A stretch of 64,000 nt of DNA from Branchiostoma floridae (lineage: Eukaryota; Chordata; Leptocardii; Amphioxiformes; Branchiostomatidae). A program made the position numbers and the translations under genes. The stretch spans positions 10,341,599 through 10,405,598 of the forward strand of contig NC_049980.1 of assembly GCF_000003815.2 (NCBI RefSeq), given 5' to 3'. Under the pieces are notes generated by a model. The model saw only the letters and a program-made list of their open reading frames with translations. It was not told the origin of the DNA and did not search any database. The stretch's first letter is position 1. Every line of letters begins with the position of its first letter. This document shows, piece after piece, positions 16,601-46,962 of this stretch.

Positions 16601-19600
16601 TTAGTGCAGCCCTGCTTCCCCTGGTTCCAAAAGAAGGTATCTCTTCAGCCGTGGAGCGATCCCAAGTTGGGATATCACAGTGTGGCACCTTCGTCCCAGG
16701 AAATCTCGCAGAGAAGATCTCGCGAGATGTTGCAGAGAGCCAGGACTACTGCCCAATGTTTCAAACGCGTCATAGAAGTCCCGAAATTTGACTAAAGCAT
16801 CTTTAGGTATTGATTCCATCCATAGGCTCGGTACCTTAACTCTTGGGTAAGCATTAATAAGTACTTCGATGGTGGGCGGGTATGAGGCACACATGACCAG
16901 AACGCGGTGAAAGATTTCGGGAAAAATCCGCCAAGCGCCGAAGTTCAGCAAAATTTGAACACATTTCTCTGGTTTCCCCTTCACCACTCCTTCGGCGCCC
17001 ATACCGGCTATTTCAGATGCTGCCACTGCGTCGAACAGTGGAGTCTTGAGAAAGTAGTCCCGCGCATTGATCTCTGAACCTTTTCGAACGAGTATTTCCA
17101 CCAGCTTGTGGTCCCCCTTGCGAGCAGCATTGTGGAGAGGCAACTTCTTTTCCTTGTCCTTCAGATTGACATCTGCACCCCACTGGATGAGTTTCTCCAC
17201 CGTGTTGTGGTAGTAGCTGTCTCCCTCCGTGCAGGTGCAGGCCAGGGCCAGAGGCGTGTCTCCTTCGTTGTTGGTTGCGTTGGGATCGGCGCCTTTCTCC
17301 AGGAGCAGGTCTACCAAGTCAAAGAGCCCGTTCTGGGCGGCCACGTGCAGGGGCGTCTCCTCGACATCGTAGGTTTTCGCGTTGATGTTGGTCCCTCTCT
17401 GAAAGTGTACATCGTATACGTAGTCAAACAACAATCAATAATACGAGGTACGTTTAAGCAAATCTTCTCGTGAGGTGAGGTGAAATGTAATATTTGGCAA
17501 AGACACGGTCCACAAACTCGACTTCTAGCATCAGTGCCATCTCCATGATCCAATGCCATCTCCAATGCCTTGTTGACCAAGCTCCCCTAAGGTACGCTTC
17601 CTGCCAACACAGGAAGCGTACCTTAGGGGAGCGACCAAAGCACAACACGGCTGGATTCCAGGCTACTTCTTTCATTTGACCAAGGAGATTATCGGGAAAG
17701 GTTTTAAACTAAAAGAAGGTGTATGAGAACCATGTGGCCTTTTATCTTTACACCGTCTTCTTGTTGACCCTCAATAGATGATTAATCAAAGTATGAATTA
17801 CCCGTAGCAGCAGCTTGGCGATCTTTAAGTAGTCTTTCCCACAGCACATGTGTAACGCCGTCTTCCCGGTGTCTTCTGTCTCCAAGTCCACGTCTGCGCC
17901 ATGGTTGATCAGCAACTGAAAGTCGAAGATCGTACGTTAGGTTGACTCAAACGAAAGAAAAAAAAGTTTATTGATTGCTGAATTAATTCTTAGCACAGTA
18001 TCATTAGTTCATGACAGAGTTGAAACGGTGTTTTTGTCCCTAGTGCCAGAAGTAAAAGATTACATTCGACTTCGTACAGCACTCGTTTGGTACGTACAGA
18101 TGACAACATTATTCATACCACATACGTACATGTAAGTTTGACCAAGGAGGTATTTAACCTCCTTGACCTTGATTTTACCACATATCCATACCACCGGTAA
18201 GGATCCCAACGCAGCACAGTGGAATTTGGACCGCTTTTAAAATTCTTGTTGTAATTAGTTTTAAATGAAAAAGAATTGTTTTCTTTAATATCTCATTTGA
18301 AAAACTATAACTGTGACCAAGAAAGGGTATTTATAATTTTGAAATGCCAACTTTTGTAAAAGAATAAATAAAGCACAAAGAACCGTAGAATTTCACAGCT
18401 TAAGTTGTGCAATTGTATATATATCAATGTCTCTAACTTGCGCCATCATATTCATATGGTATGCAGAGGGAAAAAAAACTTTTCACATAACTAAACTTGG
18501 AGGCCTAATATCGAACTTGACCTTCGTTTTTCCGACCCCAACCCATAATACACAAAATAGAGATATTGACTTATAAAAAAACTTCTAAGCTTATAATGTC
18601 AACAAATATATAAACCGACAAACACACAAGCAAACAGCCCCGAAAACATAACCTTGGCGAAGGTAATCAATGAAAAGTGAATAATTTCGTTGTTTAAATG
18701 TACATGTAATTTCAGTGATCACCTGTACGGCGTCCACATGTCCCCCGTCCACAGCGGCGTGCAGAGGAGACCAGCCGTTGGGAGAGTAGTTGACATCAGC
18801 CCGCCTGTCCAGTAGGTGACGCATGCACTCTATGTACCCTTTACTAGCGGTGATGTACAGCGGTGTGGTGTACTCCTTCACAAACGTCATGGACCAGATT
18901 CCTGAAGGAAAATGACATGTTTGGTGTTTACACACGAATAGTTTTCAGATATGAAATATAGAATAGAGCTTCAGCTTCATTTATTGTACTCCCAAAATGT
19001 GATCACAATACATACATAAATTCAATTCGCTTCAGATAAGAAACAATTGATGTGTCAGATGATGTGACGTTAAATCATTTGAGACTCAAGTAACGTTTTA
19101 AAACTGACAGGTATAACAATCTCAAAAACAACTTTTTAAAGTACGATCGTTATCTGAAGGTGAAATATAGAAAAATGTCTCCCCCAAAATGGCAATATCA
19201 AGTTGATAAGAATTGCTCCATGTATGAATATGTATTGATGTGTAACTTTACATCTTACATCAGGAGATATCGTATATTTGGAGCTGTGATCCCCAAGTAA
19301 ATATAAGGATCCGGATCACCAACAGTGTTTTTCGTCTGATATTGATTACTCTTTTTAACAGTCTCTTAAGCCAGTTGGACTAAGCCCCAACTTTCTCCAT
19401 TTTATAACCACAGACATCACCCGCATAGTCAGACCGACATCTTGGACCTGATATAACACTGGTACGGCCCAAAATAGCCTGCACTGCCACATGGGGTTAT
19501 AACTATGCACCACTGAATCACTGATACTGTCGCAGTCAATGACATTATCATTAACCCTGCCTTAGTTTAGATCTGTGAAACAGATTTTAGAGCTCCCATT

Positions 19601-22600
19601 ATGTCAAAACAGACATTACATGGCTATGAATCACACTTGTGATTGTCGACTATCGCCGCTTACGTATTTGCCTGGCAGACAAGCCCTTTGTCTCGTTCTT
19701 TATGTAATCCTGCCATGGGATCAACACGTCCTCCCCATCCTCGGTCTGTGTGAACGGCTTCACTTCCAAGACGGCGTTGACGTTCACTCCAATCTTAAGG
19801 AACCTCTTCACGTCTTCGACCTTGTCCTTCTCGAGGACTCTGTAAAAACGATCTCTCAAGCTGAGGTCCATGTTTGCATCGTCTGTTGGACGATTCGTTG
19901 ACATGAACTTGACAGTGTATTCCACACCCAACTGTTTAATACGTAATGCATCTGGCGCGTACCAGCCATGGGCTGGGATGGACAAGGGTCAGGCCTCTGT
20001 TCTTGTGAACACACATCGAAGATCATCGAACACAATCTCAATGGAAATATATAACTGTCAAGTTAAACCTGAAACCAAATGACGCGTGGCATTGCATGTA
20101 TGATGCGCCAAAATGGCAGACAAAAAGTCTGAAGTTCAAATTCTATGTCTAAGCCTACATAGGTATACAGTGGAAGCCAGTTAATTGCACACCAAATTCA
20201 CTGACAAATAGGCAGTGCAATTAAGGTTTCTACTGTATTGTATTTGTAAATGTGTGTTGAGCTGGATATTGACTTGAGAAAGTATATGTATAGGATGGCG
20301 GGTACAGACATGGCCACTGGATTTCAAAAATAAGTCCCATAACGTACCGAAGCAGACATATGCAAAGTCAATCATACTGTCAATGTTTGTAAACAGTACG
20401 TTTTTGTATACTGTTTAAATCAACAATGATGTGATTCAAAATCATGAACTTCTAGTTCTCGTCATGTTTTCATGTCGACAGTGTGCTTCTTTATTATGCT
20501 TTTGTTCAGATCAAGAGAGCGTGCACAAATTTTAGACCCACCGTAATATTTCCTTTTCTGTCTCGGATCTAGATCCTTGGTCTCCCTCTGCACGTGCTCC
20601 AGCCATGTAAGCACACGAACCTCCCCGTTTTCTTCAACAAACGGTTTCACCTCCAACACGGCGTCCACAGAAATCCCCTTAGAGAGGAAAATATCGAACT
20701 CTTCCCTCGCGCCCTTCACCAAGGCCCTGTAGAAGTTATCCTTCAGTGCGGTGGACATGTCTGTGCGCTATCTTCCTCTTCTTCTTTGTGTTTAGGTGGC
20801 CACCATCATCTTGTTGATGCTTCTGCTACTCTTATCTCTTATGGTATGTCCAGTCGTACCAAAAGCAGCATCGCCAAATGCGCACTGCCATCATCAGCAT
20901 ACATATCAAATCTACGGAGGGCACTTGTGCCAAGATCATTGTTGTTAGTCGTCGTCAGTACTTGTGACCGTAGGGGTGTGATTTTGTAGACATTTGTCAA
21001 GCTATACAATTGTAACCAAAAAGGTGGAGGCTAACTTGTTCTGACGCCTAGATTTACAAAACATTTTGATATCATATTTCATAATATTATATCATGTCAA
21101 TATATCCAATCCACCGTCTAGGTCTTGGTGCAATATTCCCGGAAATCGTTGTTTCAATACTCTGGAAATCAATACCAATCCGGAAATCGTTGTTTCAATA
21201 CCAATGCAGCTACAACGGTTGCAGGTTTTCGTTTAAGAACACTCATCATTGTCGAAAGGTTTGAATGTCTTTGAGATAAAACCAGGTATGAAATGCAAAT
21301 GCCACAGATAAAGATTTTAATTGCATCGATCCTGTTAAGCATTTTCTTACTGATAAAGAGATACGTTTATAGACATCAGACTCCTAGTATACTTTATGAA
21401 CAATGTTACGTTGTGTTCATTATCAATACCAAACTCGTACTGACTGTGATAGAGAGCAGACCCTTTGGTCGTTTTCCTGTAGTACTCCATCAATGACATC
21501 AGCTGTTCCTCGCCATTTTCGTCCTTGTAAATCTGTTTGACCTCCAACACGGCGTCTACGTCCATGCGCCTGTCCAGGAGAGTTTTTACACCGTCTAGGT
21601 CTCCCTCGGATAGGGACTGGAAGAATCGGTCTTTGGAAGTGTACGCCATCTTGGGAGCTTAATGCTGTTATTGGATACAGCTACTCGAGCCGAGAAAGAA
21701 ATACCATCGTGGTTTCTCTTACCCATCAGATATCTGTACCTACGACGTGAATAGAAACAATTCCTATAGCAATATAATATAAGATACGTAGACACCTAAA
21801 TTATCCCCGATTAGTTTCAACTATCTGTCTGATCATGTACCTGTTGAAGCCGGAAGTTAGAATTGGACGTCTTCTCGTCTTACAATGTCAAATCCAATCC
21901 TTGAAATGGCCGTGATCTGACATAGTTTCACCACCTGGATCACTTCGTCTTTGTATGATATAATGTCTATTTGTAATTAATGATTTTCCATTGCAATGTA
22001 ATCACAGTACCGTTTACGTAATTGCGTAGTCATAAGTAGAGACTACTCAAGTCTACATGACACCCACCACCCCCCACCCCGGCTCTCCATAGACTTGTAC
22101 TGCTCGGCAGTCTGACTTCAATACAATGCAGAAAGTAAGGAAAAGACCTTTGTGAACCCCCCACCCCGTCGAGTCAGTGCCCCCCGATATGATAGCCAGT
22201 GGACCAAAGGGCATTTCATCTATGTACGGGAAACATTCCGCGACGCCATATACAGGAGGATCATAACAAGCCAAGGGGTGGACCATAATATACCGAGGGG
22301 GTCAATATGGCGTAATTGGGGCATGATAAATTAATCTGAACTCTGAGAATAACAGGAAGCCGTTAATGAATTAGCCGATTTATGAAAGTCACAATTTATG
22401 GAGCCAAACGTTCGGTGATACTAATTATCACATATGATCTGTTATGTTATGATATGACGTGTAGGGTTGTGTTTATATATGACGGACCATGTTCATTTCA
22501 ATACATGACTGCACAAAAACTCTGCAACGAAATACAAACATTAAAGAGCAATTTCTCCAGTCTCACTTACCCTGTAAATCGTATTCTTGTGGTTCTTTAT

Positions 22601-22929
22601 ACATCAACTCCAACGGCCCTTTCCAGGGACGCCGTTTTAAACATTCGATCACCCTCCCCATAGCGGGTCCTCCTCTTTGAGACTATTTTGAGAGCAGGAC
22701 AACTCAGAGAAGGTCAGCGTATAAGGGAGGAAGACTACTCACCCTGTATGTCATATTCCCAACATTCCTCTCCGTCCCATTCCCACAGCTTGTTAACCGG
22801 CCGTCTGTGGTTCTCAAGATAGGTCAGAACTTTCTTCTCAGCGCCTTCGTTCAGCGCATCGAAGAAAGGATCTGTGACTTCTCTTTTGAAATGCTGGCCT
22901 TCTCTAACGTACCACTGCCAATCGGCCAT
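16601..22929 (-). CDS. Ankyrin-repeat/SOCS-box protein, locus A, with four alternative first exons
   Basis: The constant body is exons 18901-18723, 17915-17802 and 17398-16601 (TGA). It starts two bases before a codon boundary and can join any of four upstream first exons (19871-19664, 20758-20542, 21649-21430, 22929-22743), all ending in phase 1. Predicted proteins are 425-436 residues. The body has about seven ankyrin repeats (for example TPLYITASKGYIECMRHLL and TPLHVAAQNGLFDLVDLLLE, with GAD-N turns). It ends in a SOCS box: BC-box-like SLQHLARSSLRDFL, then LGIAPRLKRYLLLEP. ASB-type proteins use ankyrin repeats to bind targets and the SOCS box to bind Elongin B/C and Cullin-5. The core Cul5-box proline position (LPLP in typical ASBs) reads LGIA here. 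Alternative promoter use is inferred, and the orthologue is not identified. Confidence 0.82.
17581..17632. repeat. Perfect 23-bp inverted repeat, 6-nt loop
   Basis: Arms 17581-17603 and 17610-17632 are exact reverse complements around CCAACA. It lies in the intron between the last two body exons of locus A. Perfect pairing implies recent origin. Confidence 0.9.
18144..18164. repeat. Short palindrome AAGGAGGT...ACCTCCTT
   Basis: Arms 18144-18151 and 18157-18164 around ATTTA. A close relative is at 29749-29768. Both lie in introns of ankyrin/SOCS loci and may be the cores of small MITEs. Confidence 0.6.
19664..19871 (-). CDS. Locus A first exon 1 (proximal)
   Basis: ATG at 19871 opens 69 codons plus one base, ending at donor C|GTAAGC. 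It encodes a cap with RDRFYRVLEKDKVEDVKRFL, then VNAVLEVKPF. This start was chosen over two upstream in-frame ATGs because the paralogous first exons begin at the equivalent point. Joined to 18901 it makes an Arg codon and a 432-residue protein. Confidence 0.75.
20542..20758 (-). CDS. Locus A first exon 2
   Basis: ATG at 20758 opens 72 codons plus one base, ending at donor G|GTGGGT. The cap has KDNFYRALVKGAREEFDIFL, then VDAVLEVKPF, clearly homologous to the exons at 19664 and 21430. Joined to 18901 it restores Gly and gives 435 residues. Confidence 0.75.
21139..21225 (+). repeat. Short local direct repeat
   Basis: CCGGAAATCGTTGTTTCAAT occurs at about 21139 and 21180, linked by related CTGGAAATCAATACCAAT words. 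It lies between first exons 2 and 3 of locus A. Confidence 0.7.
21430..21649 (-). CDS. Locus A first exon 3
   Basis: ATG at 21649 opens 73 codons plus one base, ending at G|GTATTG, a weaker donor. The cap has KDRFFQSLSEGDLDGVKTLL, then VDAVLEVKQI. The start codon sits in CTCCCAAGATGGC, almost the same context as first exon 4. Predicted protein 436 residues. Confidence 0.7.
22743..22929 (-). CDS. Locus A first exon 4 (distal)
   Basis: ATG at 22929 opens 62 codons plus one base, ending at G|GTGAGT, a strong donor. The cap has DPFFDALNEGAEKKVLTYLE and ends CWEYDIQG, resembling the VWDYELQG end of the locus C exon at 30284. The start lies in ATCCCAAGATGGC. Its 5' flank faces locus B about 1.6 kb away. 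Predicted protein 425 residues. Confidence 0.72.
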
Positions 22930-24242
22930 CTTGGGATCGCTGTGTGTATTTTTTTCTTCCGGCTATTTTTCTTTTGTCAAACGGCCGATCTAATTAAATT
23001 ACTCGTTTTGTGATTCCGATGTAGTTGTTTGCAGCAAAGATAGATAAATATGCTACTGTATAGAGTACTATACAGTTATTACAAAAGGAAATGGCGAAAA
23101 ATTTGGAATAGATGAAGCTTTTTTGGTTACCTTTTTATATTTTTCCTATAGAAATTCATAATGATTTAGATCATTTTCCATTAGTCTAGTTCAAAATTAC
23201 CATATAAGTTTAGTTGTTTTTCTTTTTCATCCATTAGACCACTTGTGAACATGAACATAAAGATTATTATTATTAACATGTTCAACAAAAGGGTAAAAGA
23301 ACAGTGTGAACATTTGTGTGGTTTGATGAAAACAGGTGTCACTTCACTTCTCTCTTTTTCCTTTGCGTACTGCAGAGAAATGCGTTCAGATTCGCCATAG
23401 TACTCACAATTTCATTGGGTTTGCCGACTTATACATAACAATTCGTAACACAAAAACTGGAAAATAAACCCGTTAACTAACTGATACGCTTTGATGACGT
23501 TTTGCACACACCACGAGATTAAACTCTTTTTATTAAGAAAAACGGCAACTTGTAAAAAAGAATACGATAGAATAAAAAAAGAATACGGACCAGTTGATGT
23601 GTTGTCCACGGATGAAATTTATTGAAATCAATGACCAGTGACTGTTGACGTGATGACGCCGTGTTTACTTCGTGTCACGCGCTGGCCGGGTGTTTTCCGT
23701 TCACAATTCCGTGATGACGACAAGGATTAAAATAGAGAAATGTCACAAGGAACTAACCATTTCAGAACGGGGGTAGACAGTAAGTAGCTATTGAATGATT
23801 TTTCTGAAGAGGGGAATAGAAAATAGGAGAGAAATGCACTGCACTGACAGTCCGTTTATTTAACAAAAGACAATAAAGTAACGTTAACCCATTTTCACTA
23901 TACAAATGGTGAATATCTATTGCTATTTTTGGCTGTGAAGAAAAGTTGATTTCACTTTGATTCCCTGATGACGTAAACTCAGGTTTATCCGACTGGTCAC
24001 ATGCACGGGGCATGAAAATTAATTTCATGTAAAACCATCAATATGAGTTGTGTCATAAATATTTTTCACCATTCCACTACGTCATGGACCTTGAACAATC
24101 ATCCAAGGGAGGTCATTCTTGAACAATTACGTCATTTTTGGAAGCGGGGATTGGTGCGTGGTCACGTGGTGTCCACTAAGTCACGAGGCTCGTTGCGCAC
24201 AAGTTTCAAACTCATGTCGTCAGTGTTTACTTCTTTGCGCCG
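22930..24242. promoter_or_regulatory. Divergent intergenic region between loci A and B
   Basis: About 1.6 kb separates the distal first exon of A (minus) from the B start (plus). No exon is seen. It probably holds both promoters, but no specific element is identified apart from the TATA box listed separately. Confidence 0.4.
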
Positions 24243-24249
24243 TATAAAA
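24243..24249 (+). promoter_or_regulatory. Candidate TATA box of locus B
   Basis: TATAAAA in the context GCGCCGTATAAAAAACT, 281 bp upstream of the B start codon. Transcription would start near 24275. A GC-rich upstream edge fits a focused promoter, but there is no transcript evidence. Confidence 0.45.
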
Positions 24250-24523
24250 AACTGACTCACGCGTCCTAGTTTCTCAGAAAAACTGAGAAGGGGAAAGAGA
24301 AGTGTAGTCATCTGGCCGACTGAAGAATCTTCCTCCAGAAGTTCGTAGAGACGTCGACTGTTACTTTCTTTGCATTGGTCAAAGGCGGTTTTGGACTTGG
24401 TTTCAGGCGGTTAGAAGTAGTTTTTGAAGACGAAAACAGATTTGGGAGAGGACGGGTTGGTCTAATCTGGACAGGAGGAAGTAAGGATACATTCCGGTAA
24501 ACTTTTTCGTTCCACCAACAAAC

Positions 24524-27496
24524 ATGGATTTCATCAAGGATTTCTGCAAGGGTTCGTTTGGATCCTATCTGTCTGACGCTCAAGAAGGCTTCTTGGAGAA
24601 ACTTCTGAAGTGTCTTGAGCGGGAGGAGAAGTGGACTAAGGAAGACGCGTGCTGGTTCTACTCCGTAGTGAACGATGGGGACTTGAAGAACATGTTGAAG
24701 ATGTTGAACCGCCATGTTGGACAGGTGGACGCCAAGCTGGAGGTCCAGTACAAAAATAACGACGAACTGATGGAGTATATCTACCAGAAGGGAGACGTTA
24801 GACAAGTTGCCCCTGGTAAGTACTGCTTTTACTTTTTACACAACATTATATCGCTAGTTAAAAGATAGGAGATAGAAGGATCATGGTCGACGGAGTTCGT
24901 CCAAAAATTTAGAGGGTTAAGTCCTAATAGTGTTGATTCCAGTGTTGGGTGTAAAGTGTTAGTATCTTTATACAACAGGTTCTTTATACTTTTTGACAAC
25001 TCGGATAGCTGGCCTCTTAAATAGGTAGCGAGCCCAGAGCACATAGTGTTACTTTATATTTGAACTGTGGACCACAGAAATCATTTGTAATATTTCGTAT
25101 CGTATCAACCATGTACTGGTAAACGTTCCAGACATGTTTGTTTCGTCATCCCATATTTGTGTAACTTTAGAGTAAACAGCCAAACCGGCAACAGATGGTC
25201 ACGAGATATCAGAGGCAAAGTGCCAGAGTTTTTGCGCATCAACATAACTTGTTTACCGGATTTGTCCTTGTCAAAAGACTTCCTTTATTTGAAGGAGACT
25301 TCATTAAGACTTGAATATCTTCGTTATCTCATGAAGGGCAATGTAGTGACACCATTGAAACTTAAGATTAAATATGTATCGTTTACATCAGATTTTACAT
25401 ATTTGTAGCTCATCAAATGAATGGCTCAGTGTGAATCACAGGGAGGGTACATCTACTATATGTAATGTTTTCAGTGAAATCACGATTTGGAATGACTCAT
25501 ATCAGCCCAAATAGATCCTGCCACTGTTGACACCCATTGCAGCTTGTTTACAACTCCAGGACGCATAAAACCTCTCCCAAGTTTGGCAGTGACGATGTAG
25601 TTTTTGTTGTACGACTTTTGAACGACTAAATTAAAAAAAAATGGCTGAAATAAGAGTAAAACTTTTATCATTTTGTAACATAAAGATCTTGACAGAGAAC
25701 GATGCATTTTTCTGCTCCAGGGGTGTGGCAAATGATCTACGACACAGAATACGTCACCCCGCTGTACGTCACCGCTAAGAACGGGTACGTGGACTGCATG
25801 CGGCACCTGCTGAACCGCCAGGCGGACGTGGACTACGCTCCCAGCGGCTGGACGCCGCTCCACGCCGCGGTGGACGCCGGGCACGTGGACTGCGTCAGGC
25901 TGCTGTTGGACTACGGTGCCGACATCACCACGGAGACAGACGACGGGCTGATCGTGTTGCACCTGTGCTGTAAGCCTGGGGAACAGTACGTCAGGTGTGC
26001 GGAGGTGTTACTCAAGGTGAGTAGGTATTCATTTGCTTCTGTTAATTTCCTCCAGAGCATTCTCGTCAAAGTAAACAGACAGAATTATCCTTTGGTCGAT
26101 AAAGGTTAGACATCCAGGTGGTAAGATACGGCAAAAAGCAGTAACTCAAGCAACTGGACACGTACAGGATTTAGGAAATGGTCAAAAGAATTTGCGGATG
26201 TGATTTTGGCAACGTTCTTTGTACGTCTGCGTCGACGATTACCAATAACGTCGCATTGCATTCGGAATAGTAAATCATGTATCATGCTATATAGCATGGT
26301 TTGAGGAGCTAGCATTACCTATTTTTTTTTCATATGTATAAAGTACGTTTCATACGAACATCTTTTTACCCAGGCCAGCACAGAGCAAATCAACGAGAAA
26401 TCATGGGAAAAGCAGCAGACTCCTTTGCACATCGCCGCCAGTAAGGGTCTGGGTGGGTTGGTGGGACTGCTCCTAGAGAAGGGTGCAGATCCTAACGTTA
26501 GGGACCTGGACAAGGAGACTCCCCTACTCCTGGCTGCCTACCTTACCACTGGTGAAGACGGCTATCTCATGACCTGTCGGAAACTGGTACAGGCCGGGGC
26601 CGACGTCAACGTTCAGGATAGCGAAAAGTGAGTCAGTAGAAACTGTTATTCACCGTTAAAGATGAGTTATAGCCTCTACCAGGCTCCACAGGTCGCTAGG
26701 TCCCAAACTCTACTCCTCAGCCAGCTAACTCGTCTGGTACTAGTGTCGTATCTGTCTTATTTGCCAATTTTTGCCATTTTTTTAGCGACCTATGCTATGG
26801 AGCCTTGGGAGATGTCTTGGGAGATTTCAGTTGGGTTTAAAGGTCATTGTAAACTCTGCGATGTGTTATATGGTAAACTTACTGTTGATAGTTATGACCA
26901 AAGTTGCTTATACATTTTGTTTACCTTGGCATCTTATGTTTTTCAGCCAAATCGCTCTCCACAAAGCCTGTCGTAATGGTGACGACAGAATGGCGACGCT
27001 TCTGGCCGTCAGTGGGTCCGACATCAACCACAGAGATTATTACTTTAAGACCCCGCTGTTTGAAGCCATAGCGGCCTCAGAGCTTCTTGCCCGAGGTTAC
27101 TCCAAGGACGCAGTCAAGGGCAAACCGGAGGGCTGTGTCCAGGCCATGGTCAACAACGGCGCCTGGAGAGTCTACCCGACGGAGTTTCACCAGATTCTGG
27201 CGCAGTGCGCCGGACATCCGCCCACCATCGAAGTGCTGGTCAACTCGTACGCCTCCGTGCACATCACCGCTCTGTGGCGGGAGTCCATCCCTGATGACGT
27301 CATGGAAGAACATGGCGACTTCTACAGGGCGTTTCTGAGTCTCGGGAAAAGTCCCGCCACGCTGCAACATCTCGCGAGAAGCTCGCTGAGGAAAGTTTTT
27401 GGAAAGAAATGTCAGAAGGTTGTTGACGGGTTAGCTATAGCTCCGGGACTGAAGAAGTACATTCTCCTTGTTCCGGGGGAGGCAGGGATGCACTGA
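24524..27496 (+). CDS. Ankyrin-repeat/SOCS-box protein, locus B
   Basis: Exons 24524-24815, 25721-26016, 26374-26627 and 26947-27496 (TGA) join in frame to 463 residues. The first exon is the longest of the nine caps (97 codons) and ends VDAKLEVQ, then LMEYIYQKGDVRQVAPG. The body has about seven ankyrin repeats (TPLYVTAKNGYVDCMRHLL, WTPLHAAVDAGHVDCVRLLL, TPLHIAASKGLGGLVGLLLE). The end is SOCS-box-like: LQHLARSSLRKVFG, then LAIAPGLKKYILLVP. As in A and D, Ala replaces the Cul5-box core proline. One body intron (after LLK) is shared with A; the intron before QIALHKACRNG is not. By family it would be an Elongin B/C-Cullin E3 adaptor. Target unknown. Confidence 0.85.
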
Positions 27497-28124: not shown

Positions 28125-28130
28125 AATAAA
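28125..28130 (+). terminator. Candidate poly(A) signal of locus B
   Basis: AATAAA followed by GT-rich GTGTTGTCTTC, giving a 3' UTR of about 630 bp. Confidence 0.6.
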
Positions 28131-28523: not shown

Positions 28524-28728
28524 ATGGCAACGCCGTCTACAGAGCTAGAGATACAAAGCTCTATTGCATTATATGATATTTTCAGGAAAGGTTCTATAGA
28601 TGAAGTCAAATCACTTTTGTTGGCAGGAATTGTGTCCGCCAATGCAGCCGTGGAAACGCCGGAGAAAGACGACGACGAGCTGGTGGAATATGTTTTGAAG
28701 AAAGGCGAGATAAGGTTTGTGGGACAAG
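28524..28728 (+). CDS. Locus C first exon 1 (distal)
   Basis: 68 codons plus one base ending at donor G|GTAAGA. The cap has SIALYDIFRKGSIDEVKSLL and ends ELVEYVLKKGEIRFVGQG, close to the end of the B first exon. It begins only about 400 bp after the B poly(A) signal. TATAATT at 28483-28489 is near the start. Confidence 0.72.
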
Positions 28729-31700
28729 GTAAGAAATCTACGTACCGCAGATACCCAATGCACTCCATGTCAAGTTGTCAACTACTGAGCTCCCTTTTTG
28801 CTTGATGGCGACCGCTGAGCGACCGTACAGCGACCAACTTTCACTTGTGTGACCCCTGATTTCATGATTGAAAGATGTGGTGTAAGATGAAAAGTATATG
28901 ATTGAAGAGACACAAAACACACAATACGTAACAGAATTACAGTTCTTTGTCTATAAACATCGTTGAGCGGCGATCTGTCAAATTTGGTAGCTCAACGATC
29001 ACAGTCTCTAGTGTGAAAAGGTCTGTTAGCAACATATCACATGTGGATAGCTAGTACGTGACTAAATACACGTACTTGTACTGTGTTGGCTGTTGCTCGC
29101 ACCATCGCATCTGCTTGCAATTCGGGACAGAGAAATAGATACTGTGAGTCATTGTAACCAGATTTGTAGCACGTTACAAAAGCTGGAGCTCGGCCAAACG
29201 CCCCCCACCCCCGTTTACATCACGGTCAGTCCCAAACCAAGATGCCGCCGGCCGCAGCCCGCTTTCGCCAACTCCTGGAAGCAGGAGACAAGAAGGGGGT
29301 AAAGGAACTGGTGACCAATGGCTGCGATGTGAATATGGAGTTTGTAGACAAGGTTCTGACGGAGGACGTAGGTCGGGAGGTTGCTCTGGGTGAGTCCGTG
29401 CGTGGAAAGGCGCATCATGTGTCCTCACACTAGTACTAGATCTAGATAGATGGTTCACGGCCATGTTGAATCTTTGACTGCTCAATAACAAGGGTGAGTA
29501 CTAGTTATCGGTTGGGTATCAGAATGACGCTAGTCGTTAGCTACACATCTTTGAAGGTATAAACTCCTGGACCTAGCCCCTATAGTTGACTTCCAACATC
29601 CAGGTCTCTATATCTTTGTATTTCTTTTATTCATTCATCTTGGTAGTCTCTTCAGTTGTATATCAACAATGATTCCAAGGGAGCATATCGCAAATCTGGG
29701 CACTCAGCGACAGCCAGAAGAACCTTTTATTATCATTTCGTGGTACCCAGGAGGTTATATAACCTCCTTGGTGGCAGGCCCACACGACTATAGATGTGAA
29801 TTCTGGAAATGTCTGTGAGGTATAAAGGAATTCGCGTCCCCTTCCCACGCGCTAACTGTTCATATTGGGCCTATCTCTCTGGCCTGGCAGGCATCCTTAT
29901 ACACTCAGCTTGGTCCGTTTTGGAAGGTAGTAACCGATGGGGAAATGGACAATGCCTAAAAGGATAGAAACCATGCTACAGAATATCATGTCAACAAACT
30001 ATTTGTCACACATAATATTGACCAAACAATATTCCATTTCCTTTATCTAAAAACTCATGGGGCACTGAATTAGAAGAAGTGTTATTTGTGGAAAAAGTAC
30101 ATAGACTAAGATGTTAACCTCTTATAAACCATTGATTAATCTATAAGGATGATGATAGTTGATCCAAAGAACCAACGCCCTACAAACACCTGCAGTGCGC
30201 ATGAGCAGTCCGCCATGTTGGATAAGACCTAGTACAGGGGTAAACATAAGTTAGTTCGGCAGGAGAGATACAGGAGACCGATCATGAGTGTAGACGAGAG
30301 GTACCAGGCCGCCTGTAAGGATGGCAACTTGGAAGGCATCAAGGTGTTTGTCAGGGACGGATTCGGCATCAATAGGGACTTTGAGCATAACAACGAAGTG
30401 TGGGATTATGAGCTGCAAGGTAAAGAAAAGAAAAGAAAAAACTTTGCTCGTGCGATCCTAACGTTATGCTTTCCTTCACTAGTAGATATCATGAGGTGTC
30501 ATTCGTTGCAATATATCATTCTATATTTGATTGCAAATCACTAATATGACTATGTCGCACGTGCACGAACGATACTATAGAAAATGAAGAAGAGTGATTG
30601 TCGTTCTGGTAATGTATGATTCATTTGAACTTGACCATTATATCAGTAGAATTTTACAACACTTGCCTGTAAAACGATAGATGATAAAATTAGTGTGAGT
30701 CAAATCATTTATCACACATGAACAACATCGATCGTCGTTGAATCATAATATCCACGTTGTTGTCCCATGCGGAGGCAAACGGTCTATTTTGAGCAAGGCT
30801 AAAAGCTGCACATTACGTCACTCGATCTTTGCGGTACGTTATTTCGTTTTCTCCACGGACTACCAAAACCAGAACACGTTCTAACAGATTAGTAGGCATC
30901 ATTTACATAGCTAGGATGTACTGATCATGACTATCGTTCTGTTGCTTGTACGTATACATTTGAGGAAACAATATGAAACAGTGTTAATGTTGCTGTTGAC
31001 ATATTGCGGCGCTGTTGCTATTCCAGGCATGCACTGGCCCGCTTACACAGTTAGGGCACGGAGGGCTCTCAGCGTATGATCGTCGTGCGATCACAAACCA
31101 TCTTGGGTTATTAGTCGTACATGTGTGTCGTATGAAATTCAGGCATCTTGTTACGGAAAAGGCTGTCTTAGATCCTTGTCGGTGGTTGGTCCTGCCGCAG
31201 CTTGCTTGAACATTCAAGGACAACAAAATCCTGCAACGACCAAAGACGTACGTGACCGCACCCTCACGCAAACACACGGCATAGTAGAACCCTGTGCCAT
31301 AAACAACATTAATGTGGTAAACCTTGCCACTACTGAACCGGAGAGGTTTATCAGGACTTGACGCGTTGAATTAAAGAAACAATAGACATTGAGTGAACGA
31401 ATATTCCAACATGAATGAATGTAAGATATTGTGTATAACGATAAATAAGAAATAATTGACACAAAAAGACACAGAACAGCTAAAATAGCGGACTGAAACA
31501 TCTGTAACGTGTTTGAGCTGTGGTCCTTTCCTAGAGACGTTTTCATCAGAGTGAATTGAAAAATCCGCATAAAGTAAGGGCATATCATTGGGACCTGTCA
31601 GTGAGTTGAACATTCGACCAACTAATGACACGCGTTGAAAATGATGAAAAAAACATGGTAAAATAATTTAGATTCCGAACAATCAAATCACATGTTTGAT

Positions 31701-32808
31701 GACGCGGGGCTAACGTTGTTTATGTTTTACTGCAGGTCTGTGGTCCATGTCTTATGTGACAGAAGTGACTACTCCGCTCTTCATAGTGGTGTCCAACGGC
31801 CATGTGGACTGCGCTTCCTACCTACTCCGCATGAAGGCGGACGTCAACTACGCCCCGACCAACGACGCCCCGCTCCATGCGGCCTGCAAGCTGGGGAACG
31901 CCGAACTAGTGGACCTTCCGCTCGCCTACAAGGCTGACGCGAATCAGATGAATGAGGACGGATACTGTCCCCTCCACCTCTGCGATACAGGATCCTACTA
32001 CAAGTGCGCTAAAGCATTAATCCGCAGGGGGGCGGACATTGAGGGTGCGTCCTGGTACGAAGGAGACATGCCTTTACACAAGGCGGCTGAGAAGGGCTTG
32101 GATGACTTGTGTAGCCTGCTGGTAAACCACGGTGCCGACGTGAACGCGAGAAATGGCAATGAGGCAACCCCCCTGATCGTAGCTTGCGAGAAGAGTACGT
32201 GTGAAAGTAAATACGCCAACGCCGTTCGGAAGCTGATCGCTTTCGGTGCGGACATAGACGCCCATGACAGTGACACGGAGGCTGCTCTCCACAAGGCGTG
32301 TACAACGGCAGATTTTGAGGTTGTAAAAGTTCTAGTCGAAGGTGGAGCCGACATCAACAAGAGGGACTATGACGGAAACACTCCGCTTTACCATGCTATC
32401 TGGTCATCCACGCTAGAGGCGAAGCGGGACCTGGCACAACAGTGCGTCCGATTTCTTTTCAGCTCCGGGTCCTGGGGCATCTGGGCTGGGTCCTTCCATA
32501 GAGTGCTGCGGTCAGTATCCGTGACCCCCGAAGTCATAGAGATCATCTTAAACACGTACGCGAATATTCCCATCTCCTACAAGTGGCGTCAGAGCATCCC
32601 CGATTACGTTTACGAGGAGAACAAGGACTTTTATGACTGGCTTTTCAAGATGGCGCTGTCGCCTCGTTCCCTGATGCACCTGGCCCGTTTCTCCCTGCGA
32701 CAGTTCTTGGGCCGCAGGTGTTACCAGGTCTTCAACAGTACTAGTCTCGCTATCCCTGACCGTCTCAAGCAGTATCTTCTGTTAGAACCACAAGGCATTG
32801 TACATTAG
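28524..32808 (+). CDS. Ankyrin-repeat/SOCS-box protein, locus C, with three alternative first exons
   Basis: The body is one intron-less exon, 31736-32808 (TAG), opening with GT that completes a Gly codon. Three upstream exons (28524-28728, 29242-29389, 30284-30419) each start with ATG and end G|GT in phase 1, giving 425, 406 and 402 residues. The body shows about seven ankyrin repeats (TPLFIVVSNGHVDCASYLL, APLHAACKLGNAELVDLPL, MPLHKAAEKGLDDLCSLLV, TPLIVACEK) and a SOCS box: SLMHLARFSLRQFL, then LAIPDRLKQYLLLEP. This is the only copy in the window that keeps proline at the Cul5-box core (LAIP), so it is the best candidate for a conventional Cullin-5 adaptor. No AATAAA lies close downstream; ATTAAA at 33235-33240 is possible. 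Confidence 0.85.
29242..29389 (+). CDS. Locus C first exon 2
   Basis: 49 codons plus one base ending at donor G|GTGAGT. The cap is MPPAAARFRQLLEAGDKKG, then VKELVTNGCDVN, and ends GREVALG. A GC-rich start context (CCAAGATGCCGCCGGCC) contrasts with the AT-rich surroundings. Confidence 0.7.
29749..29768. repeat. 20-bp perfect palindrome
   Basis: AGGAGGTTATATAACCTCCT reads the same on both strands and is related to the palindrome at 18144-18164. Confidence 0.85.
30284..30419 (+). CDS. Locus C first exon 3 (proximal)
   Basis: 45 codons plus one base ending at donor G|GTAAAG. The cap has DERYQAACKDGNLEGIKVFV and ends VWDYELQG, resembling CWEYDIQG of the distal A exon. It is the shortest cap. The intron to the body is 1.3 kb and contains no other exon that I can see. 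Confidence 0.73.
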
Positions 32809-34925: not shown

Positions 34926-34929
34926 TATA

Positions 34930-36374
34930 TTCAACAGCACCGAAGTTAAGACATAGAAATTGAGACACCTGAGAGACACGTAATTTTGGTGCCCTTATAT
35001 TGGAGGTGGGCAAAATAGAGACACTGCGTACCAGGGTACACTTGTTGACATTGCGTGACGTTGTAACTTATCTACAGCATGACTTGCAAAGTTTTTCCCC
35101 TTTCGCGCTATTTCAATATGTCGCACCAAACTATTCTTATGTTACTTGTTCTTTAACGCTTTCATGCTTTAGTAACTTAGTACTATTCATTTCTGTAAGC
35201 GTTTTAATAAGGATAAGGATCTGAGGTTGTTGTTTTTCCTTGATATTTATGTTCACAGCGCATTGTTCCGTATCGGAAACCTGTATTGCATCATCTGACA
35301 AGTTCCCTGAAATACAATTGCATCATCCCAGACCAACAGTGTCATACCATAGACCTCGTGTTTCTGGGTGTAATTTGTGTCCCACCGGTGATATCCGGAT
35401 TTTGTCATTTTTAAAAGACAACGACAGTCATTGGTCATACCTCCCACGTTTAAAACATTTCCGCTTTCTGGGCAAAGACGTCGACTAGGCGACTTGCCCA
35501 ACCGGTCGTCAAGACATGATGCATATATGAATATATGATAATTGTAGGAAAAACAAAATCTTGAATTGGTTGTAACGTTACCAAACACAAAAGGCTCATG
35601 ATGAAATTTGTTATCCCCAAAATGGATGTATATCTATAATCTTTGATAATATGTTTCTATAGCTTTATAGGATCTATTTGTATATAACACACATACATGT
35701 ATGGTGTGCTTGGTACTAATGATAGGCTAAGCAGAGAGTCACTGAATGCTATAATGCATTGTGTAACTCCGCCATTGTGTCACTCACAGCGCTCTTCACG
35801 GTGTTTGAACTTCATGAATGTCTCACATGTATTTTTAGGTACCAGTTGTCTGGTCTGTCCACTGTACACCATGACTGCAAACATACTGACTACTTGTACT
35901 GATACTTTCCGTGACACTTACTGCGTGGGGAAAAACTCCAAGTGCAATATTTGACAAACAAACGCATGCCTCGCCTTTGTTTGTACTTAGGCCATGTTAC
36001 AAGATACAAAATGACTTAAATGGGTATCGCAGTGTTGCCACTGAATAAAGACCAATTTACAAAGTTCTGTGATATGACAGGCGCGCAGCACGTGACGATA
36101 ACAGCACATATGTTTCCATGGCCTTCCCATGTTTTGCAGGGAAGTTGTAGGTGAATGTCGTGAAACAATATTTACTCCACGGTGATGAGAATGTGAAGGG
36201 AACACGGTTCATAGGTAACAAGCAAAGCGTTTCATGCATTCATTTACACCACTCTGACACACTCAGGGCCAGTAGCAAAACTAAGGCAACATTTCTCTTG
36301 GTTACTAAGAAATTAGAAACATTGTCGAATTTGTCGGATATATTTCTAAACTTTTGAATTGCGGACATCAACAG
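34930..36374. other. Upstream region of the carboxypeptidase gene
   Basis: No exon, repeat end or RNA gene recognised. It presumably contains the promoter, but no TATA box is convincing. Confidence 0.35.
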
Positions 36375-42023
<5,649 letters not shown>

Positions 42024-42192
42024 AAAAATTGATGTGGTCCAATGGCATTGTTTGGAAATATTTCCATATAGAATCTATTGACTAGGTACAGTACATGTAT
42101 TTTTAATTGTCGAATATCTATTTTTCTTGTATGGTCTGCACATTCAATGCAAATGAGTTCGTTTTACCGACATAGTCGGATCACTTCCTTGT

Positions 42193-42198
42193 AATAAA
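42193..42198 (+). terminator. Poly(A) signal of the carboxypeptidase gene
   Basis: AATAAA 170 bp after the stop codon. A second (CCAATAAAGAAAG) is at about 42496. Confidence 0.6.
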
Positions 42199-42338
42199 TG
42201 CTCCCTGTTACATTCATTGAACAAAATAGCACTGACAAAGAATAGACTATAATGAATATGAAGTGTCTATGGTTGCTACACTAGTAAGCTATTCCTTTGA
42301 ATAATGGCCCAAGGCGCCTCCGGATTTTAACTTCTTTT

Positions 42339-42396
42339 AGCAAGTTGGTCATAACAATTAAGCATTAAAATGCTTAATTGTTATGACCAACTTGCT
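42339..42396. repeat. Perfect 28-bp inverted repeat with 2-nt loop
   Basis: Arms 42339-42366 and 42369-42396 are exact complements around AA. It is downstream of the carboxypeptidase poly(A) signal. Confidence 0.9.
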
Positions 42397-42828
42397 TTAA
42401 TCACTCTAGTTGGCAATTTGCCTTTTGTTTTGTGGCTTTTAAAGTTTTGCTTACGATGAAAAGGCTAGGTCTTCAAAGGGCCAGAAAGGTTTCCAATAAA
42501 GAAAGAATTCTAAACGAATGCATGAAACTGGCGTTTATTTCTAATCAAGATCTCAAAGTATCAAGAGGATCAGCGTGCTTCATGGTGTCTTGAGTAAACA
42601 TTTAGGTACATGTAATGTTACTTAGAGGAAAAGAATGTAGGTAGAGGAGAAAAACGCATCACTAACTTGTTAAGTTCATTTTGCATATTATGCCATGTAA
42701 CGTTATCATAAGAAGAACAACAAAACTCAACTTAAGATATTGTTAACATCGATCAACCCTCATAATTTCAGTGGGTGCCACCAATACATGTAATGGCATG
42801 AAACGTTTAGTTTGTTTTCGTGACCTAG

Positions 42829-43501
42829 ACCCCGTTCACACTCAAAAAAATGAAGCGGCTTCAACGTCGAAGCCGCTTCAACGGGCAAGCCGCTTCAAAA
42901 AAATTACGTTCACACTCATTTCAGACAATCCGATTAATCGCACACAATTCCGTACCTGAACTTCAGGTACTTTTTTACAACATTGTTTGTAGGTTTTCTC
43001 AAACCCACTCTTAATAGTCTTATATCATGATCCAGAGAGAAAGATGTTCAAAGATATGCTTGTTTTTTGTGATTTTTTTTTAGCTTGCTGTGTTTCCTCT
43101 CTCTTCGCGTGATAAAAAGCTTTGTTTGCTTCCCATTCCGCTTGCCTTGACTCTACAGCGTTTTTTTTCTTTCCAGACATTATCATTGGGCACAAAAATC
43201 AGTAACGTGAGCAAACCTGTCAATGTGGCGTGTGTTTCTGCTACCGATACCTGGATATATAACCTCCAACAGGGGGCAAATCGGAAATTTGCATAGAATC
43301 TATCCCGCGTTGCGTTCACACTCGCGATTTCAGCCAAGCGGCTTGTTCACAAGTGTCTCAAACTACCTCCCAGGGATGGATTGCAAACGAGCCGGATCGG
43401 TGAAAATCCAAGCCGCTTGGAGCGTTCACGCTCAAGAAAACGATCCGGATCAAGCGGCTTCCACGTTGAAGCCGCTTCATTTTTTTGAGTGTGAACGGGG
43501 T
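42829..43501. mobile_element. 673-bp element with ACCCCGTTCACAC ends and CCTAG target repeat
   Basis: ACCCCGTTCACACTCAAAAA at the left is inverted at the right, with pairing continuing through GAAGCGGCTTCAACGT. The sequence CCTAG is at 42824-42828 and again at 43502-43506. The interior repeats AAGCCGCTT words. Non-coding. Confidence 0.8.
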
Positions 43502-43904
43502 CCTAGATAAGTTTAGCTAGTTTCCCCGAAATCAGGTCTTTCCTTAAGATGCAGGGGATTTGTAAACTTTCTTAATCAATTATGTAAATAAGTACCTGAT
43601 GAACATAATTAGTATTTCATTATATAAATGAAACGCTGTCATATATGAAGCCAACAAAACTCAACTGAAGGTATTGTTAACATCAACTCTCATAATTTTA
43701 CCGAGTGCCACTAATATACACCACATAAATAAACAGAAATGATTGATATGCTACTATCATGTCCTGCTGATATATCTGCCTATGTCGGTCAATTTATATA
43801 TAACTCATTTAAGAAACGAGACAATATTATACTGTCCTGAACCAGCACATAATGCTAGCCTGATTGTCAATACTTTATACCATGTGTAAAATAGATTAGT
43901 TTCC

Positions 43905-44021
43905 TAGATTTTTAGATACTAGTAACTCATGTAGTAACTGTTCTGTATGTATGTATTGTATGTACAAGTTGCCATACACTGTATCCTGTACAGGTGTCAT
44001 GCAATAAAGTTCTTCTTCTTC
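43905..44021 (+). repeat. Probable retroposon 3' tail
   Basis: GCAATAAAGTTCTTCTTCTT ends a short block, a signal plus TTC-repeat tail typical of non-LTR retroposon 3' ends. Confidence 0.45.
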
Positions 44022-44778
44022 CGTCATGTGGTGGTATCATGGCACCTGGCGGTATTTAATATGTGAGTTGATCTAAGTCCGAGCAAGGAGTTTTAAAATC
44101 TTCTTGGTCGGAATATTTCCCTTGTTGGAAGGAAGTACAGTGAAAATCTTGCATTGATTGGTCGCAAGCGAATTACGAAACACTATCCTCCATCTACAAC
44201 GTAAAACGTTATCTAACGTTACTAACAAGAACGTATTTAACAAATGAAACACATTTTATCAGTCTGTGTACCCACTATGAAACCGAAAGAAACATATTTC
44301 AAACAGTTGTCACTATTTCACCAAGCTTTTAACACCTAAGTGATCACCAAAAGACTATATTTCTACTAAAAGTACAAAATACCACCATCATACAGATCGT
44401 GGGACAGTTCATTAACCACTGCCTTCAAAGAAGAAGCCAAACCCGACAATAGTATCCATAGTATTACGTATCAAGTTGATTAGACACTAGTTTTATGTAT
44501 CACACTATCTAACGTTAACGTTACTTCTCTTAGTTCTTGAGACTGTATATGCAATGAGCCCTCGGGCATGATTTTGCAAATAAAAGTTCAATTTAACTTA
44601 GATCATGTAACTACAAGTCAAGTGTGACAGTCGTTACATATTAACCGTAAAACTGAAGTCGTTTGAAAGTTTTCTGCATTGATTGTCACGTCACTAGTGT
44701 TTTGCATGCAGGTCAGTGCTGAATCGCTAGGTGTCGACAGGGTCAACTGGGGATCACCAGCTTACCTACGCCAGCAAA
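44022..44778. other. Upstream region of locus D
   Basis: No extra first exon is recognised here, unlike loci A and C. TTTTGCATGCAG at 44700-44711 looks like a splice acceptor and could mark an upstream non-coding exon. Confidence 0.35.
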
Positions 44779-46962
44779 ATGTCTACACCGGAGAAACCTG
44801 TAGATCTCTGCAAACTGTCGGCTGCCAATGCCTCAAAAATGTCCCACTTGTCTCGGGACAAGTTTTACTATGCCCTGAAGACCGGGGACCTTCCAACCGT
44901 GAAAATGCTGGTCAAATTCGGCGAGAGTGTGGACGCCAAACTCGACATGAAGTTCAAGAATGTTCTAGAGGAGGAACAGTTGACGTTTGAGCAGTACATC
45001 GAAAGGGCAGTTGAAAGAGGTAATTGGAAGTCATACTGTAGGCGATTAATGTATTTTATAAACGTATAACTCTTCTTGTTCAAATACGGTGAGCTGTCAT
45101 GCTTGGAAATACTAGTTTTATGTGAACTAGGTGACGTGTTATTATTTTGGTGTGCTGCCCCCCTCCCACCTCTAAATTTGGAAGTAGGGGCCTTTTTTGG
45201 CGACGCTATAGGTGCGAGCCTGTTAATCTACTACTAGTGTAGGGGAGCAAAGTATGAGACACACACTCTGTACTTGCCTGGTCAGAACTGAGATGTGGAC
45301 AGACTAGGGTCTGTCCCTTTATTGAAGCCTTATCAGAAACATATGTGGGGTGGCCCTGTCATAGGACCACCAGTGGTCATCTTCCTGTTTTCTCAGTCTT
45401 ACATCCATTATGGATTCCATATGTACTTCAAATACTAGTAACTATATTCCCAATTGTAGGAATTGAAGAAAAAATGTAATGTCTGTAAATTCTGTGCATG
45501 TTGCATTAACATCTTTGTATCTGGAAGTACAATGGGTCTGAATTCAAGTTGGTCCATTGGATATCTGTTGGGAGAACTGTCTGAATCCTGACATTTGCCT
45601 AATGTTACCAGTATTGTCTATGTGAAACTGAAGGTATTTTCCTTGGGGAGGATTCTATGTTTACATTTCATCACCAATTGATAAATGACTAATACATTTG
45701 CATGTCCCACTAGTACCTTTATCTGGCTAAACACATGTGACAAGTTTGAAATTAAACTATATAGAATGGCCATGGTGTCAGTTTAAAGATGTCTCATCAT
45801 AGTTGAAACATGAAAGAATCTTAAAATTGGAGCAGACACTTAAGTACCAGATCCTTAATGTTCATGTCTCTTTGTACCTCCCACAGGTTTCTACTCGGTG
45901 ACCTCAGCCCGAGAGATCACCACACCCCTGCAGCTCGCCGCAACAAACGGGCACAGCGACATCGTAGAGTACCTCCTGGCCCAGGGTGCAGAGGTCGACT
46001 TTGCACCAAAAGAATGGACGACGCCCCTTTCCTCCGCGTGTGAGAACGGACATGCGCAGTGTGCCAAGCTGTTGGTAGAGTATGGAGCTGACGTAGAGTA
46101 CTACAACAAGAGTGGGCTGTATCCTATACACCTGTGCAAGAAGGGTGACTACCTGGGGTGTGCCCGAGCACTGCTGGAGCACGGAGCCAATCCGAATGCG
46201 CGTACCGAGGACAAGAACAGTAGCACCGCCCTCCACATCGCGGCCGAGCTGGGCTATGCCGACCTGGTTGAGCTGCTGTGTAGTCGCGGTGCGGACCCAA
46301 ACCTGAAGGATACGGAGAAGGAGACCCCCATGACGGTCGCGTGCTATTTCACGACGGGCGAGAGGAAGTTTTACGACACGGTGGCAAACTTGATCAAGGG
46401 AGGTGCGGATCTGCAGGAGACAGACAACGACCATCTGACGCCGCTGCACACCATCTGCCGCAGGGGGGATCACAACATTGTCAGACTTCTGATCGAAAGT
46501 GGATCAGAGCTCAACTCCAGAGACTGGTACGGCAAGACGCCGATCTGTCACGCGCTGGAGTCCACCATGTACCGAAGAGAAGCCGGGAGACCGGAAGTGT
46601 GCGTACAGCTGCTCCTGAACAATGGCGCCTGGCCGGTCAATCCGAAGACTCTCTTCAAGGTGTTTGAGCTGTGCGGGAGAGCCATTCCTAGCATCGAAGT
46701 CCTCCTGAACTGTTATGGCACCTTGGAAGCAGACAGTAAGTGGAAGAAGGTGCTCCCAAGGGATGTGTTTGAGGAGAACCAGAGTTTCTACGAGGCCGTG
46801 TTCGGGTTGGGAAAGTCCCCGCCTACTCTACAGCATACGTGCAGGACTGTGGTCCGTACACTTCTAGGGGCACGATGTGAGAGGGTCATCTCGGAGCTGT
46901 CAGTGGCACCTAGGTTGAAAAGATACCTGTTGTTAGAGCCTGGTGAGGGAGGGCTTCATTGA
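44779..46962 (+). CDS. Ankyrin-repeat/SOCS-box protein, locus D
   Basis: Exons 44779-45019 and 45887-46962 (TGA) join in phase 1 at a Gly codon and give 438 residues. The first exon carries the shared cap (SRDKFYYALKTGDLPTVKML, then VDAKLDMKFKN). ATG at 44839 (MSHLSRDKFYYALK) is an alternative start closer to the paralogues. The single body exon has about seven ankyrin repeats (TPLQLAATNGHSDIVEYLL, TPLSSACENGHAQCAKLLV, ALHIAAELGYADLVELL, TPLHTICRRGDHNIVRLL) and a SOCS box: LQHTCRTVVRTLLG, then LSVAPRLKRYLLLEP, with Ala at the Cul5-box core proline. High third-position GC sets it apart from its AT-rich flanks. Like C it has no body introns. Expected role: substrate adaptor of an Elongin B/C-Cullin E3 ligase. 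Confidence 0.86.

What the first reader, a model, noticed from the sequence alone, without database searches (positions are those of the whole stretch)
16601..46962. Nine paralogous first exons with one splice phase feed four ankyrin/SOCS bodies
Seen: short ATG-starting exons at 19664, 20542, 21430 and 22743 (minus) and 24524, 28524, 29242, 30284 and 44779 (plus) all end one base into a codon, eight of nine with G|GT. All encode a related cap (aromatic, a G, then V-K and a hydrophobic pair, often followed by VDA.LEVK). All four bodies start with two bases completing that codon. Inference: a variable-first-exon system that gives one E3 adaptor body several N-terminal caps, comparable in logic to UGT1 or clustered protocadherins. 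I know of no description of this for SOCS-box genes.
Basis: partly seen in the sequence, partly recalled or inferred. Interest (0 to 1): 0.85.

Follow-up and report, generated by a model that had tools for sequence, protein, structure and literature searches.

The report
Swappable first exons of ubiquitin-ligase adaptors
In a lancelet-like genome, two of four neighbouring genes for ubiquitin-ligase adaptors each have several related alternative starting exons, which probably let one adaptor carry different front ends; the principle is known from other genes, and RNA data are needed to prove it here.

Summary
Nine short ATG-starting exons lie where stated, end one base into a codon, and each reads without a stop into the next body downstream. 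Left-out caps are found by a profile of the other eight at E<=0.0018 in 8 of 9; for 22743, 28524, 29242 and 30284 those scores (9-20 bits) are near what an ordinary ankyrin N-cap elsewhere reaches (16.8 bits).

Corrections: the split is 4+1+3+1, so only body 1 (four caps, perhaps five) and body 3 (three) are candidate arrays. Bodies 2 and 4 have one cap each; a carboxypeptidase gene separates body 4. Cap 21430 more probably ends at 21445.

Bodies are ankyrin + SOCS-box (ASB-type E3 adaptors). The cap core is a degenerate N-terminal ankyrin repeat. tblastn finds no body remnants between caps. High dS with dN about 0.5 suggests protein-level selection on three body-1 caps. Best reading: variable first exons that swap the N-cap of the substrate-binding stack.

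Not unprecedented: human ASB10 has alternative 5' exons giving two N-termini (PMC3724959); UGT1, GCNT2 and PCDH are first-exon arrays (PMC1885805). No RNA evidence was available.

The parts
22743..22929 (-). cap of body-1 array (62 aa + 1 base), most 5'; weak homology to the other caps
   Evidence: donor AGG|GTGAGT; leave-one-out E 0.0018, 15.2 bits; no pairwise z above 4
   Evidence: donor AGG|GTAAGT; similarity to cap 22743 reached by 29 of 1000 shuffles; weak
21430..21649 (-). cap of body-1 array; end as given has a weak donor, better end 21445
   Evidence: leave-one-out E 2.1e-13
20542..20758 (-). cap of body-1 array (72 aa + 1 base)
   Evidence: leave-one-out E 6.4e-10
19664..19871 (-). 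cap of body-1 array, nearest to the body; donor TAC|GTAAGC, junction residue Arg; another in-frame ATG 11 codons upstream
   Evidence: leave-one-out E 8.5e-13
18723..18901 (-). body 1 exon a, common acceptor ttccttcag|GA at 18901
17802..17915 (-). body 1 exon b
   Evidence: scripts used 17918; the flank printed puts the CAG of the acceptor at 17916-17918
16601..17398 (-). body 1 last exon with ankyrin repeats, SOCS box and stop
   Evidence: Pfam Ank 6.2e-25, SOCS_box 2.9e-10
24524..24815 (+). only detected cap (ordinary first exon) of body 2
   Evidence: donor CTG|GTAAGT; leave-one-out E 8.2e-7
25721..27496 (+). body 2: exons 25721-26016, 26374-26627, 26947-27496
   Evidence: SOCS box over cut-off
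28524..28728 (+). cap 1 of body-3 array; best pairwise match is cap 24524
   Evidence: z 15.8 with 24524; leave-one-out E 9e-4
29242..29389 (+). cap 2 of body-3 array
   Evidence: leave-one-out E 7e-5
30284..30419 (+). cap 3 of body-3 array; weakest in the profile test
   Evidence: leave-one-out E 0.12; z 6.4 with 29242
31736..32808 (+). body 3, single exon, common acceptor ctgcag|GT; ankyrin repeats + SOCS box
44779..45019 (+). only detected cap (ordinary first exon) of body 4
   Evidence: leave-one-out E 3.1e-8; AlphaFold helix pair 23-35/38-46, block pLDDT 69-82 there, mean 59.9
45887..46962 (+). body 4, single exon; ankyrin repeats + SOCS box

Best explanation
A cluster of four old duplicates of an ASB-type gene (ankyrin repeats + SOCS box, substrate receptors of Cullin-5 E3 ligases). 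The mRNA of each starts with a 5' cap exon that supplies the start codon and a degenerate N-terminal ankyrin capping repeat, spliced in phase 1 to the body. In two of the four genes (body 1: four caps, possibly five; body 3: three) there are several caps, giving a variable-first-exon array: a transcript starts at one cap and its donor is spliced to the common body acceptor over 0.8-3.8 kb. One ligase-recruiting body thus carries alternative N-caps, which probably changes substrate choice or place of expression. Shown here: coordinates, phase, donors, open joins, relatedness of most caps, constraint on three body-1 caps, one body per array, no body remnant found between caps. Inferred: separate promoters, actual splicing, change of substrate.
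For: Caps related (pairwise); all joins open; a phase-1 donor is sole best or tied best in ten of ten cap frames. No ankyrin/SOCS piece between caps by tblastn of bodies 3 and 4 at E<=1. dS 1.8-3.0 against dN 0.46-0.54 among caps 19664/20542/21430, third codon positions differing most; in 2,000 neutral runs per setting an exon stays intact in 0.2% (20542) and 0.5% (30284) at 0.75 changes per site. The cap core aligns to ankyrin repeats of solved proteins, and cap 44779 is predicted as a helix pair at low overall confidence. The C-terminus of body 4 has full-length relatives only at this locus. TATA-like sites lie within 400 bases upstream of six of nine caps; about three expected. Precedents: ASB10 alternative 5' exons (PMC3724959); the N-terminal ankyrin repeat and N-terminus of ASB9 bind creatine kinase (PMC7280518).
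Against: No RNA evidence. No shared upstream element: no 8-mer occurs in four or more of nine 300-base upstream stretches (random sets average 0.9). Cap 21430 lacks a strong donor. For 22743, 28524, 29242 and 30284 the profile score is near that of an ordinary ankyrin N-cap in another gene. The dS values are near saturation and therefore rough; for the body-3 cap pairs tried dS could not be estimated at all. The cap tree is unresolved. A cap may not be strictly needed: body 2 has an in-frame ATG 19 bases before its first exon base, and bodies 1-3 have a Met at body residue 5.
Confidence: 0.62

Rival explanations
1. Leftovers of whole-gene duplications: the extra caps are first exons of former ASB genes whose bodies were deleted, and only the nearest cap of each body is used.
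For: Four related bodies show that whole-gene duplication happened here; caps 24524 and 28524 are each other's best pairwise match (z 15.8), so cap 28524 may have come with a body-2/body-3 duplication. Cap 21430 has a weak donor.
Against: tblastn of bodies 3 and 4 finds no trace of a lost body between caps; the three closest body-1 caps are so diverged that unused ones should have lost frame, ATG or donor, yet nine of nine keep frame, ATG and a GT.
Confidence: 0.17
2. Only a subset is used: a main first exon per body plus one or two minor alternatives, with no regulated cap choice of consequence (ordinary alternative promoters).
For: No common upstream motif; donor scores range from 4 to 8 of 9.
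Against: Protein-level constraint on three caps of body 1.
Confidence: 0.15
3. Some caps are not first exons but internal exons joined to another cap (multi-exon N-terminus), or belong to short separate transcripts.
For: Candidate 22571 could be an internal phase-1/1 exon 70 bases after cap 22743 (read by eye).
Against: All nine begin with ATG and have an in-frame stop 4-40 codons upstream.
Confidence: 0.06

Closest known systems
Human ASB10 (ankyrin repeat and SOCS box 10)
   Same: ASB gene whose alternative 5' exons give different N-termini on one ankyrin/SOCS body (PMC3724959, Introduction read). From recall only, vertebrate ASB10/ASB18 bodies resemble these four, including the start '.LW....TTPL'.
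   Different: Two described N-termini, not a tandem array of paralogous caps; no ASB10 or ASB18 sequence was available here, so orthology is untested.
ASB2 alpha/beta
   Same: SOCS-box ankyrin gene with isoforms; ASB2 beta as the predominant skeletal-muscle isoform is in PMC8594701 (passages seen). That the isoforms differ in first exon is recalled.
   Different: Two isoforms; not an array of homologous caps as far as recalled.
Multiple-variable-first-exon clusters: UGT1, GCNT2, clustered protocadherins
   Same: Tandem variable first exons on common downstream exons (PMC1885805, abstract read).
   Different: There the variable exon encodes a large domain (recalled); here it encodes 45-97 residues with an ankyrin N-cap on an E3 adaptor. 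A specific promoter before each first exon is stated for UGT1 (abstract of PMC3325998, listing), not shown here.
ASB9-Cullin 5 ligase
   Same: ankyrin + SOCS-box receptor; its N-terminal repeat and N-terminal segment contact the substrate (PMC7280518, passages seen).
   Different: I saw nothing on alternative caps of this kind there; a splice variant ASB9-2 is mentioned.

Membership tests
ASB family (ankyrin repeat + SOCS box) | several ankyrin repeats | tested here: met
   Pfam Ank E 6e-25 to 2e-45 for bodies 1 (last exon), 3 and 4; body 2 by tblastn to 3 and 4
ASB family (ankyrin repeat + SOCS box) | C-terminal SOCS box | tested here: met
   PF07525 over cut-off at all four bodies; E 3e-10 to 7e-10 for the three scanned
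ASB family (ankyrin repeat + SOCS box) | binds Elongin B/C and Cullin 5 | not testable with these tools
   biochemical
ASB10/ASB18 subfamily | orthology to vertebrate ASB10 or ASB18 | not tested
   no vertebrate sequence in reach; PDB search of the body-4 C-terminus gave only ASB9 at E 0.45-0.96; resemblance is recalled
Multiple-variable-first-exon cluster | tandem homologous 5' coding exons with own ATG | tested here: met
   (body 1: four, of which 22743 weakly; body 3: three, of which 30284 weakly)
Multiple-variable-first-exon cluster | common phase and one shared downstream acceptor | tested here: met
   one body per array
Multiple-variable-first-exon cluster | each first exon has its own promoter | tested here: inconclusive
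   no shared motif; TATA-like site upstream of six of nine caps, about three expected
Multiple-variable-first-exon cluster | transcripts join each first exon to the constant exons | not testable with these tools
   no RNA data

The most novel reading that the evidence does not exclude
A chordate E3 ubiquitin-ligase adaptor locus works as a substrate-selector cassette: promoter choice among four (or five) and three paralogous ankyrin N-caps puts different front ends on one Cullin-5-recruiting body, a protocadherin- or UGT1-like logic applied to targeted protein degradation outside vertebrates.
Probability: 0.45. Interest if true: 0.75.

Novelty: new member of a known kind. Interest (0 to 1): 0.5.

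Why it matters
In the one ASB-substrate complex cited here the N-terminal repeat touches the substrate (PMC7280518). A natural array of alternative N-caps on a constant body would be a ready-made experiment on which residues set specificity. It would add a non-vertebrate first-exon array in an intracellular degradation pathway (the Ugt1, Gcnt2 and Ugt2a organisations are called vertebrate-specific in the abstract of PMC1885805). It would also make it testable whether the alternative 5' exons of human ASB10 are an old chordate arrangement (inference; orthology untested).

Tried and rejected
Shared promoter element: none found. Haplotype copy of the body-1 array for a polymorphism test: among 40 listed DNA matches only the window itself covers more than a repeat of about 50-70 bases (40 of 271 candidates scored). 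Other SOCS loci with caps: 20 of the 50 SOCS-box places listed outside the window were fetched and searched with the cap profile. Eight ORFs scored at E<=1, the best single stretch 16.4 bits (L028, an N-terminal ankyrin repeat of another gene); the stretches seen cover only the ankyrin part (about profile positions 11-43 of 72), none with the cap's tail. The other 30 places were not examined that way. Genome search with cap 19664 found three places, all in the window (itself, 20542, 21430), but missed the six more distant window caps, so it speaks only for close relatives. A possible fifth family member on C8 proved a copied fragment of body 3 (84% identity over 67 aa; no cap at E<2 in 8 kb). 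Cap tree unresolved, long branches. Tenth cap 22571 kept as a weak candidate. Pfam on the caps given (24524, 44779, 20542, 19664, 21430): nothing near a cut-off. Paper searches, ten of ten used: no listed title concerned this locus; 'SOCS box' with 'alternative first exon' gave one paper, on SOCS1; 'amphioxus', 'SOCS box' and 'ankyrin repeat' gave one, on a fish transcriptome.

Known slips: body-1 exon b was taken three bases too long, so body-1 lengths are one residue too long.
Full report
Setting. The window is contig C2:10341599-10405598 of a 513.4-Mb, 431-contig genome.

Observation. All nine cap exons were found at the stated places with ATG, open frame and a GT one base into a codon. Eight are G|GT, one (19664) C|GT. 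Joining each to the next body downstream on its strand gives one open frame with a single terminal stop in nine of nine, also with the alternative end of cap 21430. Junctions read G-(I/L/V)W.M or GFYSV, with Arg in place of Gly for 19664 and for the alternative end of 21430.

Are the caps related? E-values were 2.1e-13 (21430), 8.5e-13 (19664), 6.4e-10 (20542), 3.1e-8 (44779), 8.2e-7 (24524), 7e-5 (29242), 9e-4 (28524), 0.0018 (22743) and 0.12 (30284, outranked by a body ORF). With the nine-cap profile the next hits after the nine were body ORFs at E 0.029 and above. A result that tempers this: in 20 fetched SOCS-box loci an ordinary N-terminal ankyrin repeat of another gene reaches 16.8 bits with the nine-cap profile, as much as 22743, 28524 or 30284 do when left out. 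Five caps are thus securely one family. 28524 (z 15.8 with 24524), 29242 (7.1 with 21430) and 30284 (6.4 with 29242) are joined by pairwise scores; 22743 has no pairwise z above 4 and rests on position, ATG and phase-1 donor.

What the cap is. Against PDB sequences the cap profile matches repeats of ankyrin proteins over profile positions of about 8-34. Whole-chain E-values there sum many weak stretches; single stretches in the three printed alignments score 0.9-8.6 bits. An AlphaFold model of cap 44779 (mean pLDDT 59.9, low) has a helix pair at 23-35/38-46 in its best part. The cap core is best described as a degenerate ankyrin N-cap.

Donors. A nine-position consensus count (consensus recalled) puts seven of nine cap donors among the best 4% of all GTs in the window; 19664 scores 6 (reached by 16%) and 21430 scores 4 (reached by 72%). 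Scoring every GT in each open frame without regard to phase, a phase-1 site is sole best in eight of ten frames and tied in two.

How many caps per body? Body 1 (18901 to 16601, minus): 22743, 21430, 20542, 19664, and perhaps 22571. Body 2: 24524. Body 3: 28524, 29242, 30284. Body 4: 44779. A zinc carboxypeptidase gene on the plus strand (Peptidase_M14 in ORFs at 36309, 38090 and 39317; a sub-threshold regulatory-domain match at 41622) lies between body 3 and cap 44779, so body 4 looks like a separate ordinary gene. Introns from cap to body would be 762-3,841 bases.

Arrays or leftovers? tblastn of bodies 3 and 4 (E<=1) shows no piece of a body between caps. Among 19664, 20542 and 21430, dS is 1.8-3.0 (near saturation, so rough) and dN 0.46-0.54. 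In a neutral simulation without indels an exon like 20542 keeps ATG, frame and GT in 0.2% of runs at 0.75 changes per site and 0.85% at 0.5; for 30284 the figures are 0.5% and 1.75%. DNA-level similarity between cap regions, apart from overlaps of the stretches given, is one 25-base coding stretch around VDAVLEVK in two pairs. Retained use is therefore more likely than decay for these three caps. For the other caps the argument rests on intact frames and donors.

Does a body need a cap? The ORFs of bodies 3 and 4 have no ATG between the upstream stop and the acceptor. Body 2 has one in frame 19 bases before its first exon base, and bodies 1-3 have a Met at body residue 5, so a capless start is not excluded.

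Genome-wide. The 123-residue C-terminus of body 4 has eight matches at E<=0.1: four strong ones, all in the window. The fifth, on C8, is a copied fragment of body 3, and the rest are weak. Cap 19664 finds three places, all in the window, but this search missed six of the nine window caps, so distant caps elsewhere are not excluded. The four bodies share 37.5-55% identity. Bodies 1 and 2 have introns; bodies 3 and 4 are single exons.

Mechanism. Best reading: transcription from different starts chooses the cap, which is spliced to the acceptor downstream. The SOCS box recruits the ligase (established for ASB proteins) and the cap alters the first repeat of the substrate-binding stack. In ASB9 the N-terminal repeat binds creatine kinase and the N-terminus enters its active site (PMC7280518, passages seen). 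Promoters, splicing and substrate change are inferred.

Known context. [quoted passage not shown] So the claim that no such thing is known for SOCS-box genes fails. First-exon arrays are known for UGT1, GCNT2 and protocadherins (PMC1885805, abstract read). My ten searches showed no array of paralogous caps on a SOCS-box gene.

Verdict. Real and probably functional; a new member of a known kind, with one clear experiment (RNA 5' ends and junctions) outstanding.

Noticed in passing
window 36309-42020 (+): Zinc carboxypeptidase gene (Peptidase_M14 in three ORFs, sub-threshold CarboxypepD_reg match) with a hydrophobic, signal-like start, lying between body 3 and cap 44779.
   Followed up: partly
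window about 20768-20836: A dispersed repeat of about 65 bases with dozens of copies in the genome lies just upstream of the start codon of cap 20542; a second repeat stretch is near 20175-20245.
   Followed up: no
L029 6701-6901 (C8:16956200): A fragment of body 3 (84% aa identity over 67 residues, ending inside the SOCS box) copied to another chromosome; no ankyrin part or cap seen in the 8 kb fetched.
   Followed up: partly
window 31736-32808 and 45887-46962: Bodies 3 and 4 are single exons while bodies 1 and 2 have introns, one at a matching place; intron loss or retro-copying within the cluster is possible.
   Followed up: no
window 22571-22661 (-): Short ATG frame ending EYDLQ + G|GTAAGT, like the ends of caps 22743 and 30284; may be a tenth cap or an internal exon.
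   Followed up: partly
window 25702 (+): In-frame ATG 19 bases before the first base of body 2, which could give a capless body-2 start.
   Followed up: no
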